This document shows, piece after piece, positions 46,761-54,158 of a stretch of DNA of 64,000 bases. The notes beneath the pieces are model-generated. The model was not told where the DNA came from. It ran no database searches and was given only the letters and a program-made list of their open reading frames with translations. The stretch's first letter is position 1. Each line of letters starts with the position of its first letter. Origin of the DNA: Gammaproteobacteria bacterium (GTDB taxonomy: Bacteria; Pseudomonadota; Gammaproteobacteria; Pseudomonadales; Azotimanducaceae); NCBI GenBank assembly GCA_009841615.1, contig VXLL01000018.1, forward strand, positions 1 to 64,000. Reading direction: 5' to 3'. The position numbers and the translations under genes are program-made.

Positions 46761-47348
46761 ATGAAACTATTTAAGATCTTCGCCCTGATTTCGTTAACGA
46801 GCTTAATTTCCTTGAGCGCTATCTCTCAACAAGTTGAAGAAACGGATTCAACAGAATCCTCCAGTGAGTCTTCGACAAGGCTTGAAACAACTCAAAGAGA
46901 GACTGACGAAAACGAAGGTCTCGATGCTACATCAGAGATAATTGACGGACTGGTAGAGTCCATGCTAGAAGCCACAGTTAGCATGTTTGGTCTTACTCTT
47001 TCAGGGGATCTGTTCGAAGAAGTAATTGATGACATGAAGAAAAATTGGCCTGCAAGTATCGAAGAGTTTGACGCTGACAAAGACGGTTCATTGTCTTTAG
47101 AAGAATTAGAAAATGTACCCGAAGAGAACTGGGAAGACGACTTCAAAGCACTCTCTGCAGAAGAGCGCGACGAGACTCTGAAGAGTCAGTTCAAAGAACT
47201 AGACACCGACGAGGATGGTGAGGTCACAGTTGAAGAAGTCGTGAAACACCTCGAGAAGCAAGTAGAAACATTAGAGGAACTGTTCAAGGACTTAGAAAGT
47301 TCTTCATCAACCGAGTCAAGTGAGAAAGCGTCTAATAGTGTCGAATAG
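46761..47348 (+). CDS. Exported acidic EF-hand protein
   Basis: A 195-residue protein with a clear signal peptide (MKLFKIFALISLTSLISLSAISQ), a low-complexity Ser/Thr/Glu stretch, then two calcium-binding EF-hand loops, DADKDGSLSLEE and DTDEDGEVTVEE, both with canonical ligands. It is very acidic overall and ends in a Ser/Glu-rich tail. It probably binds calcium in the periplasm or outside the cell. It is the second EF-hand protein in this 7-kb cluster, with the hydrolase-like protein at 39901. Confidence 0.8.
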   Translation: MKLFKIFALISLTSLISLSAISQQVEETDSTESSSESSTRLETTQRETDENEGLDATSEIIDGLVESMLEATVSMFGLTLSGDLFEEVIDDMKKNWPASIEEFDADKDGSLSLEELENVPEENWEDDFKALSAEERDETLKSQFKELDTDEDGEVTVEEVVKHLEKQVETLEELFKDLESSSSTESSEKASNSVE

Positions 47349-47545: not shown

Positions 47546-47644
47546 ATGTCTTACACGAAACTTCACCTAGCGGCTGGCGAATTTATCATGCACAAAGCGA
47601 AATTCCACTGGAGTGATTGGATATTCTTTTTGGGACTTCCGTAG
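47546..47644 (+). pseudogene. 5' fragment of a PH-domain membrane protein gene broken by a TnpB element
   Basis: An open frame starting MSYTKLHLAAGEFIMHKAKF and continuing HWSDWIFFLGLP is the N-terminus expected for a bacterial PH-domain (bPH2, YdbS-like) membrane protein. It runs into a stop codon at 47642-47644, inside the left inverted repeat of the TnpB element. The rest of the gene continues in frame on the far side, from about 48914. Confidence 0.8.
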
Positions 47645-47658
47645 ATAACTTGACAAGC
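47639..47658 (+). repeat. Left 20-bp inverted repeat of the TnpB element
   Basis: CCGTAGATAACTTGACAAGC is the exact reverse complement of 48905-48924. It covers the last base of the tnpB stop codon. A degenerate direct copy (13 of 17 bases) lies just inside at 47665-47681, within the last codons of tnpB. Confidence 0.9.
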
Positions 47659-48869
47659 TAGCCACGAAGATTTCTTGACAGTTCATCAGGTCCGTAACCG
47701 GAACGCCCTCCCTGTCCAATCGCCCGAGTCCCAAGGGCTAAGATATTTAATGCAGCGTTGATGTCTGCATTACCCGAATGTCCGCAACTCACGCACTCAA
47801 ATCTGGATTGCGTCTTGCGGTTCTCTTTTTCGATGTGTCCACATTGGTGGCATTTCTGACTCGTATGTATCGGAGCTACTTCAATCAGCTCTGCTTTGTA
47901 CGCGAGCTTTAACTTGAAGCTCGACCATCCGGTCGCGAGGATCGAACGATTGAGACCAGATTTCGCTCGAACGTGCTTGCCTGGTTGCTCAATCGTACCC
48001 TTTGCGGACCGAGTCATCCCCTGCGTGTTGAGACTCTCGATCACCACAAACTGAAAGTGATCAGCGATCCGTCTCGATTCTTGATGTTGCCAGTCATTAA
48101 GAATATGAGCGATCTTGCGACTGGTTTTCGCAGCTAACTGCTTGGCTTTCAAGTATCGATGCGAAGGCTTGATTTCTCTTTTACGATCCGGCTGCTGTCG
48201 TCTGGCCATCATGCGCTGATAGCGACGACGCCTCGACTCTAACTTGCTTAGATCCGATAAATATCTGATTTCACCCGCGCTCGTAGCAAACTGTCCCACA
48301 TTTCGATCGATTCCTAGAACTTCACCATTCTGATTGTGTTCCACATGTTCCACCGCATAACACACCGTGGCATAGAACTTCCGGCACTCTTCTCGTATTA
48401 CCACGGATACGGGCTCACAGTCCGCGTACGGATTGGCACCACTGATGACTACTTGACCGATTTTCGCGAGATGCAACGATCGACCATTGAGCCTAAAACT
48501 ACCGGCTGGAAACGTAACCGAATCTGTGTCGTACCAGCGACTCTTGAACTTCGGAAACCCTTTGTCAGAACGGAAACATTGCTGCCACGCGTCGGCTTGG
48601 TATTTCAACACGTAGCGAATGGGATTGAAAGGCAATTCACCCAACCAGTCCGTGGTTCGCCTCAATTGGGTAAACTCCTTGCCCAGCGAAAAGAACGTCG
48701 TATTCGGCCGCGGGTTGGACGGGTCAGCGCGATAAGCTTCCATCATTCTTTGATTTTCTGCTAAGAAATAGTTCCACACAAACCGCGTAGCCCCCAAGCA
48801 CTGTTTCAAGAGGTTGGCTTTGTCCAACGTCATGGGATAAAGTCGATATCGTATTGAACGGTTATACAT
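47658..48869 (-). CDS. tnpB: TnpB RNA-guided nuclease (IS200/IS605-type OrfB)
   Basis: Transposon-encoded RNA-guided DNA nuclease, the ancestor group of Cas12. I chose ATG 48869 (403 residues), giving MYNRSIRYRLYP as in relatives; a GTG at 48893 is in frame. The three RuvC acids are present: Asp188 in GIDRNVGQFAT, Glu278 in VVIESLNTQGM and Asp369 in SGNADINAALNI. The zinc finger CHQCGH...FECVSCG is intact, so the protein should be active. No tnpA (Y1 or serine transposase) lies nearby. The gene sits inside a PH-domain gene between perfect 20-bp inverted repeats. The guide RNA would be expected to overlap the 3' end of the gene and read into 47638 and below. Confidence 0.93.
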   Translation of the reverse strand: MYNRSIRYRLYPMTLDKANLLKQCLGATRFVWNYFLAENQRMMEAYRADPSNPRPNTTFFSLGKEFTQLRRTTDWLGELPFNPIRYVLKYQADAWQQCFRSDKGFPKFKSRWYDTDSVTFPAGSFRLNGRSLHLAKIGQVVISGANPYADCEPVSVVIREECRKFYATVCYAVEHVEHNQNGEVLGIDRNVGQFATSAGEIRYLSDLSKLESRRRRYQRMMARRQQPDRKREIKPSHRYLKAKQLAAKTSRKIAHILNDWQHQESRRIADHFQFVVIESLNTQGMTRSAKGTIEQPGKHVRAKSGLNRSILATGWSSFKLKLAYKAELIEVAPIHTSQKCHQCGHIEKENRKTQSRFECVSCGHSGNADINAALNILALGTRAIGQGGRSGYGPDELSRNLRG

Positions 48870-48904
48870 ACTGTTATTATATATACCATCCACGCAATTT
48901 TCGT

Positions 48905-48924
48905 GCTTGTCAAGTTATCTACGG
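48905..48924 (-). repeat. Right 20-bp inverted repeat of the TnpB element
   Basis: Exact reverse complement of 47639-47658, 36 bp upstream of the tnpB ATG. The outer part (GTTATCTACGGC) also reads in frame as V-I-Y-G of the interrupted PH-domain gene, so part of this repeat may be host sequence rather than element. Confidence 0.9.
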
Positions 48925-49207
48925 CATTCCCTTCTTTTTCTTGCCTTGGGTCTTAATTCGATTACTGACTACCGAGATGTACGTGACCAATAAGCGATTT
49001 ATCTATAAGAAAGGATGGATTGCACGCAAGACAGAGGAGGTTAACGTCAATCGAATCGAGGAAGCAAATATTCGCCAGTCCATGCTCGGTCGAATTTTGG
49101 GGTACGGCTTGGTGCAAATCAGAGGTACAGGCGGTAGCTATATAGTGTTGAAGAAAATCGCTGCGCCTGGAAAGCTTCAGCGAATGATCTACTCGGCAAT
49201 GGAATAG
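48925..49207 (+). pseudogene. 3' fragment of the PH-domain membrane protein gene
   Basis: Continuation of the broken gene at 47546. IPFFFLPWVLIRLLTTEMYV and TNKRFIYKKGWIARKTEEV show the end of the membrane segment and the bacterial PH domain (bPH2), closing with MLGRILGYGLVQIRGTGGSY. It keeps a full reading frame to the stop at 49205-49207 and could be read from a frame starting at 48854, but it has lost the natural start. The damage looks recent, since no further disruption is seen. Confidence 0.8.
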
Positions 49208-49277: not shown

Positions 49278-52200
49278 CTAATTCGCTCCTGGTTGAACCA
49301 CGAACAACAAATCGCCTTGATTCACTTGTTGACCAGTGTCAACGTTCACTCGAGTGACTTTATATTCGGTGTTTTCAGGGTACAAGAGCTCCGAACCAGA
49401 GTTTAAGTCCTTTAAACGGAGCGGTGTGAAGATCTTGAAAGCTTCAATCTGACATAGAGTCTGATCCACGGAAACTGAGTCGCCAGGTTGTACGTAGTCA
49501 TTGTCAGTTGGTGTTGGTTTGGTGTAAAAAATCCCCGTAGCTGGCGAAAGCACTTTCAATTCATTGCTGTCTTCAATACGTAATGCATCCAACCCTACTA
49601 GCGCGTCTTCATGCCCTTTCATAGCTTCCATTTCAGCAATCAAAGAATCTGCATCGGTACGCTCCAAAAACTCCGGTAGGTAGTCAGTAGTAAACTCGCC
49701 GTCACGAAATACCTCGTCTTTCAAAACGCGCTTCAGTAACGCAATGTTGGTTCCAATTCCTTCGATTTTCAATTTGTCTAGGAACTTAAACAACCGATCG
49801 GCAGCAGAATTTCTGGTCGACCCGTGTGCAATCACCTGTGCGATCATGCTGTCATAGTAGGGTGATATAAACTTGTCCTGTGCTGCGATAGTAATGACAT
49901 CAACGCGAGCACTGTTAGGGAAAGAACAGTGAGTAATGCGACCTGCACTGGGTCGAAAAGTAACACTACCGTCAGCCGCTCGCACGACTTGTTCGGCATT
50001 AATACGAGCCTCGATGGAGTAGCCACGACTTCCGACCTTCAAATTTGCAATACTCTCACCCGACGCGATGCGGAACTGCTCGCGAACAATGTCCACCTCG
50101 GACACTTGTTCAGTTACTGGATGCTCTACTTGTAGTCGTGTGTTCATTTCCATGAAATATACTTCTTGCTTATCTACGTCATAGATAAACTCCACGGTAC
50201 CTGCACCTAGATAATCAACCTCGTCAGCCAATGCTGTACTGTGTTTAAACACTTCTTTAACTAATTTCGCGGGAAGCATTGTGGAACCAGACTCTTCAAA
50301 TACTTTCTGCCTATTCCGTTGAACGCTACAGTCTCGTAAGCCCAATACTTTCGTATTCCCGTGCCGGTCCCTTAGAACCTGTACTTCGATGTGACGCAGT
50401 TTTTGCACGAACCGTTCTAAATAGACGTCCCCACTGCCAAACGCTGCTCTAGCTTCAACAGACACCCGCTGAAATAGCTCTAAGAAATTTTCCAGCGAAT
50501 CGACTAGTTGAATACCCTTTCCGCCACCACCGTGTACCGCCTTGATAAGTATTGGAAAACCAATTTCGTCGACAATTTCCATTGCCTGTTCCATGTCATT
50601 CACAATACCATGACTGCCCGGAACTACTGGAACTCCTAACCCTAACGCAGTGTTGATTGCGTTCGATTTATTCCCCATGGTTTCCATCGCTTTTACGGGT
50701 GGACCGATAAAGTTGATCCCGTGAGCACGAGTCAAGCCTGCGAAGTTGCTATTCTCAGAAAGAAACCCAATTCCCGGATGCAAGGAGTCAACGCCAAACT
50801 GTTCGGCAATAGTGAGCACAGATCGAGCGTTCAAATAGCTCTCGTCCGGCGTACTCCCACCGATACAAACTAGTTCGTCTCTACTTGTGAGCGAGTCAGC
50901 AGCTACTGAATCCATGTCCGGATCGGACTGAACAAGTACCACTTGAATGTCTTGCTCTTGCGCGATTCGAACTATCTTCACAGCCGCACACCCTCGAGCA
51001 TGAACGAGAACTCTTTGAACTGGTCGAAATAAATCAGCTTCCTGAACGCGACGTTCAATTGTTGGAACGTGTTTAGTTGTCACCGCGGTCAATGACCCTT
51101 CCATCACCCCTGCAACTACTTCCAGGACGGTGTCGCTCGGTACAGGAATATCAGGATCAATCTCTCGCAATTCTTCATCAAGTTGGGTGTAAAAAGGATG
51201 TTTGACCAACCCTTGCATTGCACCTGGAGTAGTGATCAAATAATTTGAGAGAATGGAATCTAATGGTAAGTAGCTTGGTACTACAATTTGCCCAGCAAAC
51301 GGCATGCTCGTGCCAGAAAAGTAATAAGTGTGCACCAGCGGATGAGTAACAAAACTAGCTTGGGCACCACCAGTACAATCGCCATAACCAAACACGATTA
51401 CCGGTAGGTCATAGTCGCGGACAAAGTGCGTAATACGATCGTTGATTGCCGCCATCGAGAAGAGTGCTCCAGCACCTTCCTTGGTCTGCATACCACCAGA
51501 AGAAATGAAGCAAACTACAGGGAGCGTGAGTTCCGCGCAACGGTGTAACAATCGACAGAACTTTTCGGCACTCGCCATATCGAACGCGCCGGCTTGAAAA
51601 CGAGAATTTGAGATTACGATACCAAACTTCAATGCACCTTCCACTCCTTTGAAGGTACCGATTCCGGTCACCGTTCCGCAAGGTGGTTCGTTGTTATCTA
51701 AAGCACCTTCGATCGCGAGCCGGAAGCCTGGAAACTCCACGGGGTCTCCACTTATAAGATCGCCAAAGAGTTCCTCAAAGTCTGTAAAAAACTCGTCACG
51801 AAAGGCTTGATAGGTGATTTTTTTGGACTGTTTGTAACTTGATAGAACTTGTTGCAGTTGTAAGTCACGATAAGCGTTGTTTAAACGATTCCAAAAGTCG
51901 CGTCGACGACCGATGTTGCGCGGAGTGATCTTTCCAGCGTAACGAATTCCTTCCCCTTCATATCTCAAATATGAAACAACAATTTTCTCAAAAAGAAACG
52001 TTATTACGACGAATAGTGTGTCTGACAAATGAGAAAAGCTTGCTTTCTTCCATTCCTCGACGGTGAGCAAGAATTTGCGAAAGTTAGGGAGTGTGGAGAA
52101 TCTGAGATACCACGCAAAGAAACGGGCTTGCAACTCTTCAACGGTGGTACCTTGATTCAAGACGTGACCAAGAGCATCACGAATTCCGTTTTCACTGTGA

Positions 52201-54158
52201 GTCAAGAGCAGTTGCCGTACCGTGTACGGCTCCAACGATTGCGTCGCTTTCGCCTCCGCGGCGATGGACTCTAAACTCTTGATTACCCCATTGTAAACTG
52301 CATCGAAAATCAGCTGATTCTCAAATTCTTCAATGAATGAGGTCTTCAATTCAGGAATCTGAATAACGTCTAAAACGTTGGTGACCGACTCTTCATCGAC
52401 CACCGCGAAACCTACGCTACGTCCCCTCAAGTACTTTGCATACGTTCGGTCGACAAGCCTTCTATTGTGAGTCGCAATTTCTTGCTGCCGTTGAGTTTCA
52501 TCGGCAATGACAGGTAACTGGTGGGTATCGCTCTCGAAGCTTTCTCCCGTAATCGCCAAGTTGAGTTCTAGTGTGAGTTGGTGCGCGACTTGTTCATCTG
52601 ACAAGTCATCAACATCTGGAGCGTGAAAGATTCGAGTGCCTTGATGTGTCAAGCGATGTCGGAGATCTGCGCCGAAGCCGGAGTCATGATCAATTCGCTC
52701 AAGTAATTCCCGAGGATTTATCAGTTCCATCGGATGGATTAAATCGTACCGCGCAGTCTCATGCCGCAGGTAGTCGAGAAGGAGTTTCAAATTACCTGTG
52801 GAATCGACTTTCCAACGATTGACCAAAAATGCCCCAACACCACCAAATAAATTACTCCGCGATGTCTCAAAGTTTTGCCGTGGTTCACCAAACAACATGC
52901 GTTGCAATCGATTGCGACTCTCACCCAAAGCAGCTTTCCGACTAACGTATGTGCGCCAAGCGGTCTTGAGTGAGTCGTCATACACGACACGGTCAGGGTC
53001 TTGAAGCCAACGGAAAAACGCGCGGCGACGATCCAAATCTAATCGTTTTTGCAGCTCGCCCTCAGGAATCTCTCGATGCGCCAAACGCCCATATTGGTTA
53101 GTACTTGTGGATTTGATACGGCGTCGAACCCGCAAAAACCGAGAAAATCGATATGCAACGCCAAACACATTGAGATAATCAGTGGGGTTTTCGACGAATT
53201 CAAAAAGCGAAGCACTTTCGGTTTGTTTCATTCGTTCTGTTGGGAACAAATATCTGTTTAAGACGTGCCGATATTCCTCAAGAAACATTTTTTCTTGTGC
53301 GACGAAGGTCTTAGTACTAGCTTCGATCGAAGAGATTCCCGTTACGATGGCTTGCCGAAAGTTGTCGAGCTTGTCGTCTTTTTCGCCAGGGACATAATCA
53401 ATAATCCCGTCGATACACCCCTGCTCCATTAGTTCAAATGGGGAAACACCGACGTGTTTCGCACACTCTTGCCATGACAAATTTAAGCGACGCGCGATGT
53501 TCGCTAACCCACGTGGTTGAATCGTGCTGAACAATCCATCTCGAACGGACAGGATCATGTTGCTTGCCGCTAATGGGATCGCACCTCCAGAATAGCCGAT
53601 TCCGAATATGACTCCAAGGTTAGGTACGTCAATGTCAGACATGACGGCTATCAATCGGGAAATGTTATGAGCTTGGTTTCCACGATTAGCTTCTTCGTCT
53701 GCAGCCGCGCCTGGAGTGTCCATAAGGCTTACGATTGGAATGGATCGACGGGTACATGCTTGAACAAATTCGGCAGCAGCAAAGTGTTCATCCGGACCCC
53801 ATACGCCATTACGATGATTACGGTCTTGAGCCAAAAACGCAACGAGACGTTTATCCTCGGGAAATTCCATTTCCAGAATGGCGTCAAAGTAAGGACCATT
53901 GCTGGTGGCCTGGTTAACTCTACCTAACTGGTGGATGATGTCGGAAGCTGGTGTGCGATCCGGCATTTCCGCTGGAGCCACGACCTGCTCGATATAACCA
54001 TCGACACCCATGCTCTCAAGTTCAGCCACGCGCGCGGCGATTTCACGCGTGCCTAACAATCCACGTACAGAGTATTCAGACTTCGGATCGGATGAAGGAA
54101 ATAGGTTGAAATCCTGTGCAATCCGTTCTGCTTTTAAGAAGAGTCGTTCGTCGTTCAA
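49278..54158 (-). CDS. Single-chain biotin-dependent acyl-CoA carboxylase (CT-CT-BC-BCCP)
   Basis: 1626 residues carrying all parts of a biotin-dependent carboxylase. Residues about 85-300 are an AccA-like carboxyltransferase half (VIFGIGYSGGAIPLAASN). About 300-800 is a helical region without a known match. About 825-1030 is an AccD-like half (VCFISSGGMQTKEGAG, FGYGDCTGGAQASFV). About 1047-1500 is biotin carboxylase, with ATP-grasp text IKAVHGGGGKGIQLV and FMEMNTRLQVEHPVTE. The end (1535-1626) is the biotin carrier domain. The biotin site reads EAFKI (Lys1575) where EAMKM is usual. The reaction is probably carboxylation of acetyl-CoA or a longer acyl-CoA; the substrate cannot be told. FabY and thiolase genes lie just beyond, divergent. 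Confidence 0.9.
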   Translation of the reverse strand: MNDERLFLKAERIAQDFNLFPSSDPKSEYSVRGLLGTREIAARVAELESMGVDGYIEQVVAPAEMPDRTPASDIIHQLGRVNQATSNGPYFDAILEMEFPEDKRLVAFLAQDRNHRNGVWGPDEHFAAAEFVQACTRRSIPIVSLMDTPGAAADEEANRGNQAHNISRLIAVMSDIDVPNLGVIFGIGYSGGAIPLAASNMILSVRDGLFSTIQPRGLANIARRLNLSWQECAKHVGVSPFELMEQGCIDGIIDYVPGEKDDKLDNFRQAIVTGISSIEASTKTFVAQEKMFLEEYRHVLNRYLFPTERMKQTESASLFEFVENPTDYLNVFGVAYRFSRFLRVRRRIKSTSTNQYGRLAHREIPEGELQKRLDLDRRRAFFRWLQDPDRVVYDDSLKTAWRTYVSRKAALGESRNRLQRMLFGEPRQNFETSRSNLFGGVGAFLVNRWKVDSTGNLKLLLDYLRHETARYDLIHPMELINPRELLERIDHDSGFGADLRHRLTHQGTRIFHAPDVDDLSDEQVAHQLTLELNLAITGESFESDTHQLPVIADETQRQQEIATHNRRLVDRTYAKYLRGRSVGFAVVDEESVTNVLDVIQIPELKTSFIEEFENQLIFDAVYNGVIKSLESIAAEAKATQSLEPYTVRQLLLTHSENGIRDALGHVLNQGTTVEELQARFFAWYLRFSTLPNFRKFLLTVEEWKKASFSHLSDTLFVVITFLFEKIVVSYLRYEGEGIRYAGKITPRNIGRRRDFWNRLNNAYRDLQLQQVLSSYKQSKKITYQAFRDEFFTDFEELFGDLISGDPVEFPGFRLAIEGALDNNEPPCGTVTGIGTFKGVEGALKFGIVISNSRFQAGAFDMASAEKFCRLLHRCAELTLPVVCFISSGGMQTKEGAGALFSMAAINDRITHFVRDYDLPVIVFGYGDCTGGAQASFVTHPLVHTYYFSGTSMPFAGQIVVPSYLPLDSILSNYLITTPGAMQGLVKHPFYTQLDEELREIDPDIPVPSDTVLEVVAGVMEGSLTAVTTKHVPTIERRVQEADLFRPVQRVLVHARGCAAVKIVRIAQEQDIQVVLVQSDPDMDSVAADSLTSRDELVCIGGSTPDESYLNARSVLTIAEQFGVDSLHPGIGFLSENSNFAGLTRAHGINFIGPPVKAMETMGNKSNAINTALGLGVPVVPGSHGIVNDMEQAMEIVDEIGFPILIKAVHGGGGKGIQLVDSLENFLELFQRVSVEARAAFGSGDVYLERFVQKLRHIEVQVLRDRHGNTKVLGLRDCSVQRNRQKVFEESGSTMLPAKLVKEVFKHSTALADEVDYLGAGTVEFIYDVDKQEVYFMEMNTRLQVEHPVTEQVSEVDIVREQFRIASGESIANLKVGSRGYSIEARINAEQVVRAADGSVTFRPSAGRITHCSFPNSARVDVITIAAQDKFISPYYDSMIAQVIAHGSTRNSAADRLFKFLDKLKIEGIGTNIALLKRVLKDEVFRDGEFTTDYLPEFLERTDADSLIAEMEAMKGHEDALVGLDALRIEDSNELKVLSPATGIFYTKPTPTDNDYVQPGDSVSVDQTLCQIEAFKIFTPLRLKDLNSGSELLYPENTEYKVTRVNVDTGQQVNQGDLLFVVQPGAN

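What the first reader, a model, noticed from the sequence alone, without database searches (positions are those of the whole stretch)
47546..49207. TnpB element with perfect 20-bp inverted ends interrupts a PH-domain gene
A complete tnpB gene lies inside a PH-domain gene whose two pieces can be read on both sides. The element is bounded by CCGTAGATAACTTGACAAGC and its exact reverse complement. IS200/IS605 and IS607 elements that carry TnpB do not normally have long terminal inverted repeats, and no tnpA is present. This suggests movement by a different transposase in trans, or a different insertion history such as repair-made inverted ends. No target-site duplication is obvious.
Basis: partly seen in the sequence, partly recalled or inferred. 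Interest (0 to 1): 0.75.

Follow-up and report, generated by a model that had tools for sequence, protein, structure and literature searches.

The report
RNA-guided nuclease inside borrowed transposon ends
A bacterial RNA-guided DNA-cutting gene (tnpB) sits inside the end sequences of an unrelated transposon family, and one of those ends appears to double as part of the nuclease's guide RNA, which would be a new way for such nucleases to travel and to stay in a genome.

Summary
Leaving out the element and one octamer gives an open 117-codon PH-domain frame. The ends resemble those of IS1595-type (DDE) elements in relatives. IS605-type TnpA was not found in 13 of 14 host genomes searched, this one included. 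I count 36 distinct tnpB insertions with such ends (Gamma- and Alphaproteobacteria, Chloroflexota); a natural vacant allele was found for one of them, not for the PH site. Two signals suggest TnpB works: the base just 5' of the duplicated target is G in 34 of 36 tnpB insertions but 10 of 35 IS1595 insertions (a TAM signature), and the right-end tip covaries with a tnpB segment 92-143 nt upstream, the pseudoknot geometry of ISDra2's omega RNA. Best reading: a non-autonomous IS1595-type cassette whose right repeat doubles as the omega-RNA 3' end and programmes TnpB against vacant sites. RNA, cleavage and mobilisation are inferred, and the window's own mobiliser was not found.

The parts
47546..47623 (+). 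5' part of interrupted PH-domain gene
   Evidence: ATG at 47546; frame continues after 48939 when the element and one octamer are left out
47624..47631 (.). target-site duplication, copy 1 (TTCTTTTT)
   Evidence: identical to 48932-48939
47632..47658 (.). right-end (RE, tnpB 3' side) terminal inverted repeat; inferred 3' end of omega RNA on the - strand
   Evidence: 27-nt arm I1, 93%; same right end in G008 and G005; tip 47632-47637 complementary to 47727-47732
47658..48893 (-). tnpB, 411 aa, RNA-guided endonuclease family; stop codon 47658-47660 abuts the RE repeat
   Evidence: dN/dS 0.17 and 0.19 against two close copies
47632..47747 (-). predicted omega-RNA scaffold (length by analogy with ISDra2's 116 nt)
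   Evidence: inference and PMC10097598 (passages)
47727..47732 (-). GGGACU segment inside tnpB, predicted pseudoknot partner of the RE tip AGUCCC
   Evidence: covarying across the 34 of 36 elements that have the motif
47636..47669 (-). predicted terminal hairpin CUUCGUGG...CUACGGAAG; 3' arm is RE repeat
   Evidence: pairing read by eye from the right end; the minimum-energy fold differs in part; modest statistics in sister elements
47612..47631 (-). predicted guide segment = octamer copy plus host flank
   Evidence: inferred from RE boundary, pseudoknot geometry and the G signal
48905..48931 (.). left-end (LE, tnpB 5' side) terminal inverted repeat
   Evidence: LE of G008 and G005 copies match GGGAATTCCGTAGATAACTTGACAA with 0 or 1 mismatch
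48932..48939 (.). target-site duplication, copy 2 (TTCTTTTT)
48940..48940 (-). candidate TAM base G just 5' of the target octamer on the tnpB strand
   Evidence: G in 34 of 36 distinct tnpB insertions, 10 of 35 IS1595 insertions
48940..49207 (+). 3' part of interrupted PH-domain gene (bPH_2)
   Evidence: PF03703 47.8 bits

Best explanation
A non-autonomous IS1595-type element (mobile insertion cassette) whose only gene is tnpB. An IS1595-family DDE transposase acting in trans moves it between its 27-bp ends and duplicates 8 bp of target. The transcript of the tnpB 3' end runs through the RE repeat, which forms the 3' arm of the last hairpin and the pseudoknot strand of the omega RNA; the next ~16-20 nt, the target octamer plus host flank, become the guide. 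TnpB is thereby programmed against the vacant version of the site, where the guide match is preceded by a TAM ending in G; in the occupied copy the match is preceded by the repeat's terminal C and is spared. Cutting vacant copies would favour repair from occupied ones (retention or homing), so insertions next to a TAM persist. Shown by sequence: ends, duplications, one vacant allele of a sister element, G bias, covariation, purifying selection. Inferred: transposase in trans, RNA processing, cleavage, homing.
For: Ends and TSD: of 171 tnpB loci scanned, 43 score >=18 (0.68 expected from 1,500 mispaired flanks), 36 distinct sites after removing repeats. IS1595 loci: of 61 examined (41 in the genus, 20 in other host genomes), 36 have GG-starting repeats with a duplication of at least 7/8. 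In G248 the left end of the tnpB element L151 matches the end of an IS1595 element, L360, at 23 of 24 bases, its right end at 19 of 24; G013's IS1595 element L057 has ends 3 mismatches of 25 from the window family's left-end consensus, with an 8/8 duplication. Y1 TnpA found in 1 of 14 genomes; IS1595 domain in 16 of 18 genus genomes and 7 of 7 others. Vacant allele: G242:C61 matches the joined flanks of L308 over 318 of 320 positions at 90%, no gap at the joint, one octamer, preceded by ACG. TAM: G 34/36 against 10/35, Fisher P 4.3e-9; other side of the same insertions C 9/36. Pseudoknot: 13 distinct partner/tip pairs, 67 of 78 positions paired, shuffle mean 57.7, 0 of 10,000 reach it; RE tip fits better than LE tip in 16, worse in 3, tie 15. 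dN/dS 0.15-0.29 in 13 pairs.
Against: No IS1595 element with the window's ends was found in its own genome: the two with recognisable ends there have other repeats, so the mobiliser would be lost, unassembled or foreign. The two Caldilineaceae genomes richest in these tnpBs gave only fragmentary IS1595 genes. No vacant PH allele was found: 57 relatives gave only three weak PH matches, 25-29%. Two of 36 sites lack the G (L293 A; L006 T, a distant TnpB); of sites left out of that count L005 and L149 have T. L147, L309 and L311 have RE tips fitting worse than LE tips. The terminal hairpin is only modestly supported: own repeat -12.5 against foreign -10.6 kcal/mol, best decile in 9 of 36; RE better than LE-substituted in 17, worse in 5, of 28; in the L022 group 40 of 52 cells pair. 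The shuffles ignore shared descent. No RNA data exist here; Rfam finds nothing.
Confidence: 0.8

Rival explanations
1. Plain passenger: the IS1595-type cassette carries tnpB, but TnpB has no role in its life; the RNA-like features are inherited from an IS605 ancestor.
For: Three insertions share a tnpB with an in-frame TGA (L017, L019, L027), so copies with a possibly broken tnpB seem to have moved.
Against: Does not explain G in 34/36 against 10/35, dN/dS 0.15-0.29, or the tip/partner covariation including the GGCTC/GAGCC lineage.
Confidence: 0.1
2. TAM-licensed insertion: TnpB, or TnpB with its omega RNA, helps choose the target with a fixed orientation, so the G is set at insertion rather than by later retention.
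For: The one-sided G sits at a constant place relative to the insertion, 34/36; IS1595 elements without tnpB lack it.
Against: The guide is copied from the site after insertion; octamers look alike by eye (A/T-rich) with and without tnpB. No TnpB acting this way appears in the passages I read.
Confidence: 0.1
3. Ordinary IS200/IS605 or IS607 element with chance or repair-made inverted ends.
For: The TnpB protein matches the IS605 TnpB models.
Against: 8-bp duplications, 36 distinct sites, vacant allele of a sister with one octamer, no Y1 TnpA found in 13 of 14 genomes.
Confidence: 0.01
4. The one-sided G is a target preference of the particular IS1595 transposases that move tnpB elements, unrelated to TnpB.
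For: Controls with nearly the same ends as a tnpB element are few, and the two oriented ones, L057 and L360, both have G.
Against: 35 IS1595 insertions with related ends, 10 G; four further ends of the L057 type, orientation unknown, have C, G, C, C; the G holds across tnpB elements with very different repeats, and C follows the right octamer in only 9/36.
Confidence: 0.12

Closest known systems
IS200/IS605 tnpB elements (ISDra2 type)
   Same: TnpB protein family; RNA overlapping the tnpB 3' end (predicted here), predicted pseudoknot of the last 6 nt with a segment 92-143 nt upstream (ISDra2: -6..-2 with -102..-106, PMC10097598, passages)
   Different: 27-bp inverted repeats and 8-bp duplications; no TnpA; the TAM is seen only as G beside the octamer, not as a fixed target motif of TnpA
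IS1595 (ISXO2-like) family DDE elements with passengers
   Same: GG-starting ends, 8-bp A/T-rich duplications; present in the same genomes
   Different: no transposase gene; tnpB as only gene; RE repeat apparently constrained as RNA
Mobile insertion cassettes (MICs; definition recalled)
   Same: inverted repeats of an IS around a non-transposase gene
   Different: cargo is an RNA-guided nuclease whose guide would be written by the insertion site
Fanzor-bearing TIR transposons of eukaryotes and their viruses (PMC3627910, PMC10711439, passages)
   Same: TnpB-family nuclease inside TIR/TSD DNA transposons, some non-autonomous, repeats predicted in the RNA scaffold
   Different: bacterial; here the duplication appears to lie in the guide, not the scaffold, and the pseudoknot, reported lost in Fanzor1, is kept
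IS607 tnpB elements
   Same: TnpB present; RNA boundary adapted to the transposase (PMC10711439, passages)
   Different: IS607 elements have no terminal inverted repeats and make no target duplications (PMC6188088, start of abstract in the listing)

Membership tests
TnpB (RNA-guided endonuclease) proteins | full-length TnpB match with RuvC D/E/D and zinc ribbon | tested here: met
   NF040570 214 bits, cut-off 100; invariant D196, E286, D377 and four Cys in 12 rows
TnpB (RNA-guided endonuclease) proteins | guided DNA cleavage | not testable with these tools
   needs experiment
IS200/IS605 | no terminal inverted repeats, no target duplication | tested here: not met
   27-bp repeats, 8-bp duplication
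IS200/IS605 | Y1 TnpA in the element or available in the genome | tested here: not met
   none found in G000; 1 of 14 genomes has a match
IS607 | no repeats and no duplication | tested here: not met
IS607 | serine recombinase TnpA | not tested
   no search for serine recombinases was made
IS1595-type ends | repeats like those of elements encoding PF12762 | tested here: met
   no matching element in the window's own genome
IS1595-type ends | 8-bp target duplication | tested here: met
   window 8/8; vacant allele of sister L308
IS1595 autonomous element | own DDE transposase | tested here: not met
   only tnpB between the repeats; so a cassette, not an autonomous member
omega RNA | pseudoknot of scaffold 3' end with upstream segment | tested here: met
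   covariation in the 34 of 36 elements with the motif; structure itself not shown
omega RNA | expressed, processed RNA | not testable with these tools
   no RNA data; no Rfam match up to E = 1

The most novel reading that the evidence does not exclude
TnpB and its omega RNA take part in IS1595-type transposition itself: insertion is licensed by a TAM-like G on one side and therefore oriented, so a DDE transposase acquires an RNA-guided nuclease as target-selection and retention partner, with one DNA end serving two masters (transposase binding and RNA folding).
Probability: 0.12. Interest if true: 0.95.

Novelty: new variant of a known kind. Interest (0 to 1): 0.85.

Why it matters
[quoted passage not shown] Here bacterial TnpBs of two phyla sit in IS1595-type ends and appear to keep the pseudoknot because transposon end and coding partner change together. 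If right, it gives a natural experiment on how RNA-guided nucleases change vehicles, a way to read a TAM from genome data alone, and a source of compact TnpBs with apparently loose TAMs. It would also show that a tnpB-only locus need not be a remnant of IS605.

Tried and rejected
Rejected: chance repeats; one repeat belonging to the PH gene (octamer duplication, relatives); IS605 ends inside the repeat: I first read TTGAC/GTCAA in the repeat as IS605 cleavage sites, and dropped it when relatives showed the whole repeat conserved. A guide taken from the inverted repeat itself: dropped because the pseudoknot and G signals both place the guide start at the octamer.

In one search L018 was oriented wrongly by a longest-ORF rule; searches use its correct strand. 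In one search L297 entered in a wrong frame and L321, L151 and L293 are long branches; the tree was a quick one.

Dropped before counts: 128 of 171 loci under score 18 and 7 repeats of sites already counted. Sites left out by those rules: L014, L023, L033, L155, L157, L162 (all G) and L005 (T); with ends but no duplication L019 and L150 (G) and L149 (T). Among IS1595 loci 25 of 61 without clear ends, and L103 (repeat 15/24); no mispaired control was run for IS1595 loci.

Full report
WHAT IS THERE. The reported perfect repeats exist at 47639-47658 and 48905-48924 and are beyond chance (two matches, none in 100 shuffles). The repeat finder extends them to 27-nt arms, 47632-47658 and 48905-48931, 93% complementary. 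Immediately outside lie two identical octamers, TTCTTTTT at 47624-47631 and 48932-48939. Leaving out the 1,300-bp element and one octamer gives an open reading frame of 117 codons whose C-terminal part is a bacterial PH domain. The gene between the repeats is tnpB on the minus strand, 411 aa, a clear guided TnpB, with its stop codon touching the right-end repeat.

THE ENDS ARE NOT AN ACCIDENT OF THIS SITE. Close tnpB copies in the same genus (two of G008 at 90-91%; a partial one in G005 at 94%) have the left end GGGAATTCCGTAGATAACTTGACAA with 0 or 1 mismatch. In G005 a contig end with the left end and another with the right end both carry the octamer TTAAATAG, so I take them as one copy; that right end and a 3.2-kb copy in G008 (L056, no duplication) have other DNA between the tnpB body and the right end. 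I scanned 171 tnpB loci for a GG-starting repeat (at least 10 of 16) with a duplication of at least 7 of 8. 43 loci reach a score of 18, where 1,500 mispaired flanks predict 0.68; removing sites seen twice leaves 36 distinct insertions. They come from Gammaproteobacteria, Alphaproteobacteria and Caldilineaceae (Chloroflexota) (record titles); several names look like sponge-symbiont series (recalled, not tested). Two Caldilineaceae genomes hold 22 and 36 matches to the TnpB alignment at E <= 1e-60. None of the 60 more distant loci L165-L224 (Halomonas, Azospirillum, Malikia and others) is among the 36. In a quick tree of 102 proteins the 42 rows with such ends need 4 changes against 32.7 shuffled: mostly one side of the tree, apart from L006, a distant TnpB of the window's own genome with its own 8/8 duplication, and the uncertain long branches L321 and L297.

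A NATURAL VACANT SITE. The joined flanks of L308 (G243) match G242:C61 over 318 of 320 positions at 90% with no gap at the joint: one octamer (TTTTTCAT there; TTTCTCAC and TTTCTCAT beside the element), preceded by ACG in both. This fixes the ends at the repeats and the 8-bp duplication for a sister element. A second try (L289) found only the occupied copy. Across the 36 joined sites 26 are open for at least 120 codons over the joint (no control was run for that figure). For the PH site itself no vacant allele was found; 57 relatives gave three weak PH matches at 25-29%.

WHICH TRANSPOSASE. Repeats with duplications do not fit IS605 or IS607. Y1 TnpA (PF01797) is found in 1 of 14 host genomes and not in the window's; serine recombinases were not searched. 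The IS1595 DDE domain (PF12762) is in 16 of 18 genus genomes and 7 of 7 others. Of 61 IS1595 loci examined (41 in the genus), 36 show GG-starting repeats with a duplication of at least 7 of 8; the consensus GGGAATTATnnACnnnACTTGACA (read by eye) resembles the tnpB ends. Best direct links: in G248 the left end of tnpB element L151 agrees with IS1595 element L360 at 23 of 24 bases, its right end at 19 of 24; the G013 IS1595 element L057 has ends 3 mismatches of 25 from the window family's left-end consensus. Against: the window's own genome has two IS1595 elements with recognisable ends and they carry other repeats, so its mobiliser is not identified; the two Caldilineaceae genomes yielded only fragmentary IS1595 genes. 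A tblastn with the window TnpB found no tnpB inside the 26 IS1595 elements held at that point.

THE TAM SIGNATURE. In tnpB orientation the base immediately before the left octamer is G in 34 of 36 distinct insertions (exceptions L293 A, L006 T); position -10 is C in 20 of 36. In 35 IS1595 insertions it is G in 10; Fisher P 4.3e-9. The mirror position of the tnpB insertions is C in only 9 of 36. Among sites left out, six more have G and one T; three with ends but no duplication have G, G and T. The window's base is G (48940, minus strand). Controls with nearly identical ends are few: L057 and L360 both have G, four unoriented ends of the L057 type have C, G, C, C.

THE RIGHT END AS RNA. The last six bases of the right end are complementary, at 4 to 6 positions, to a six-base tnpB segment 92-143 nt upstream in the 34 elements where a flanking motif finds it (L006 and L321 have none). 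Thirteen distinct combinations occur, among them GGGAAU/AUUCCC, GGGACU/AGUCCC, GGGAGU/ACUCCC, GGGGCA/AGCCCC and GGCUCU/UGAGCC; 67 of 78 positions pair, shuffle mean 57.7, none of 10,000 reaches it. The right-end tip fits the partner better than the left-end tip in 16, worse in 3, tie in 15. An earlier set of 25 elements gave 133 of 150, shuffle mean 124.2, P 0.0006, and 13 against 4. ISDra2's omega-RNA pseudoknot pairs -6..-2 with -102..-106 (PMC10097598, passages): the same geometry. The inner repeat also forms the 3' arm of a predicted terminal hairpin in many of the 28 folds, with a compensating change in the Caldilineaceae rows (98 of 99 cells paired, nine rows) and one in the L022 group (40 of 52 cells, four rows); overall statistics are modest. 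The shuffles ignore relatedness.

SELECTION. dN/dS is 0.15-0.29 in 13 close pairs. Against a strict need for TnpB, three dispersed copies share an in-frame TGA.

HOW IT MOST LIKELY WORKS. An IS1595 transposase in trans inserts the cassette; the insertion writes the guide (octamer plus flank) behind a scaffold that ends in the repeat; TnpB cuts vacant copies that show a TAM ending in G, while its own locus shows the repeat's terminal C there. Insertions beside a TAM are retained. The ends, one vacant allele, the G bias and the covariation are shown; transcription, cleavage, retention and the identity of the transposase are inferred. Gene-drive behaviour of TnpB on plasmids is reported for IS200/605 (PMC11870625, abstract and passages).

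NOVELTY. [quoted passage not shown] PMC3627910 (passages) describes Fanzor1 in several DNA transposon families. My searches for bacterial TnpB with IS1595 or other DDE elements showed no such report in their listings (open-access full texts only, listings of 5 to 25 papers, with no hit at all), so absence is weak evidence. I file it as a new variant of a known kind.

Noticed in passing
L006 (G000:C23:19325-20443): A second, distantly related TnpB in the window's own genome also has GGG-type repeats (GGGACTTATCCAGCTGATTAGAC) and an 8/8 duplication, with the stop codon in the loop of a predicted terminal hairpin; base before the octamer is T.
   Followed up: partly
L004 and L005 (G000:C31, G000:C25): Two closely similar tnpB elements with another repeat, GGTAGTGGCTCAGTTTGAA, and imperfect (6/8) or no duplication; the family of these ends is unknown.
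   Followed up: no
L017, L019, L027: Three dispersed tnpB copies in two genomes each show one in-frame TGA in the first part of the gene; either a broken but still mobile lineage or readthrough.
   Followed up: no
L057:1406-4497 (G013:C23): IS1595-type element with 8/8 duplication carrying an N6/N4-methyltransferase-like gene and a PD-(D/E)XK nuclease-like gene beside the transposase, perhaps a restriction-modification passenger.
   Followed up: partly
L056 (G008:C3) and L058 (G005:C54): Relatives of the window's element with other DNA between the tnpB body and the right end, with the same inner junction in both; in L056 that DNA begins with an IS1595-like end (by eye), whose other end was not found.
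   Followed up: partly
G242 and G243 (Caldilineaceae): 22 and 36 matches to this TnpB group in single genomes, a large TnpB expansion, while only fragmentary IS1595 transposase genes were found there.
   Followed up: partly
window 49278-54158 (-): A 1626-aa gene joining carboxyltransferase-like, biotin carboxylase and biotinyl domains in one polypeptide.
   Followed up: no
window 46761-47348 (+): Small EF-hand protein with a hydrophobic N-terminus by eye, just upstream of the PH-domain gene.
   Followed up: no
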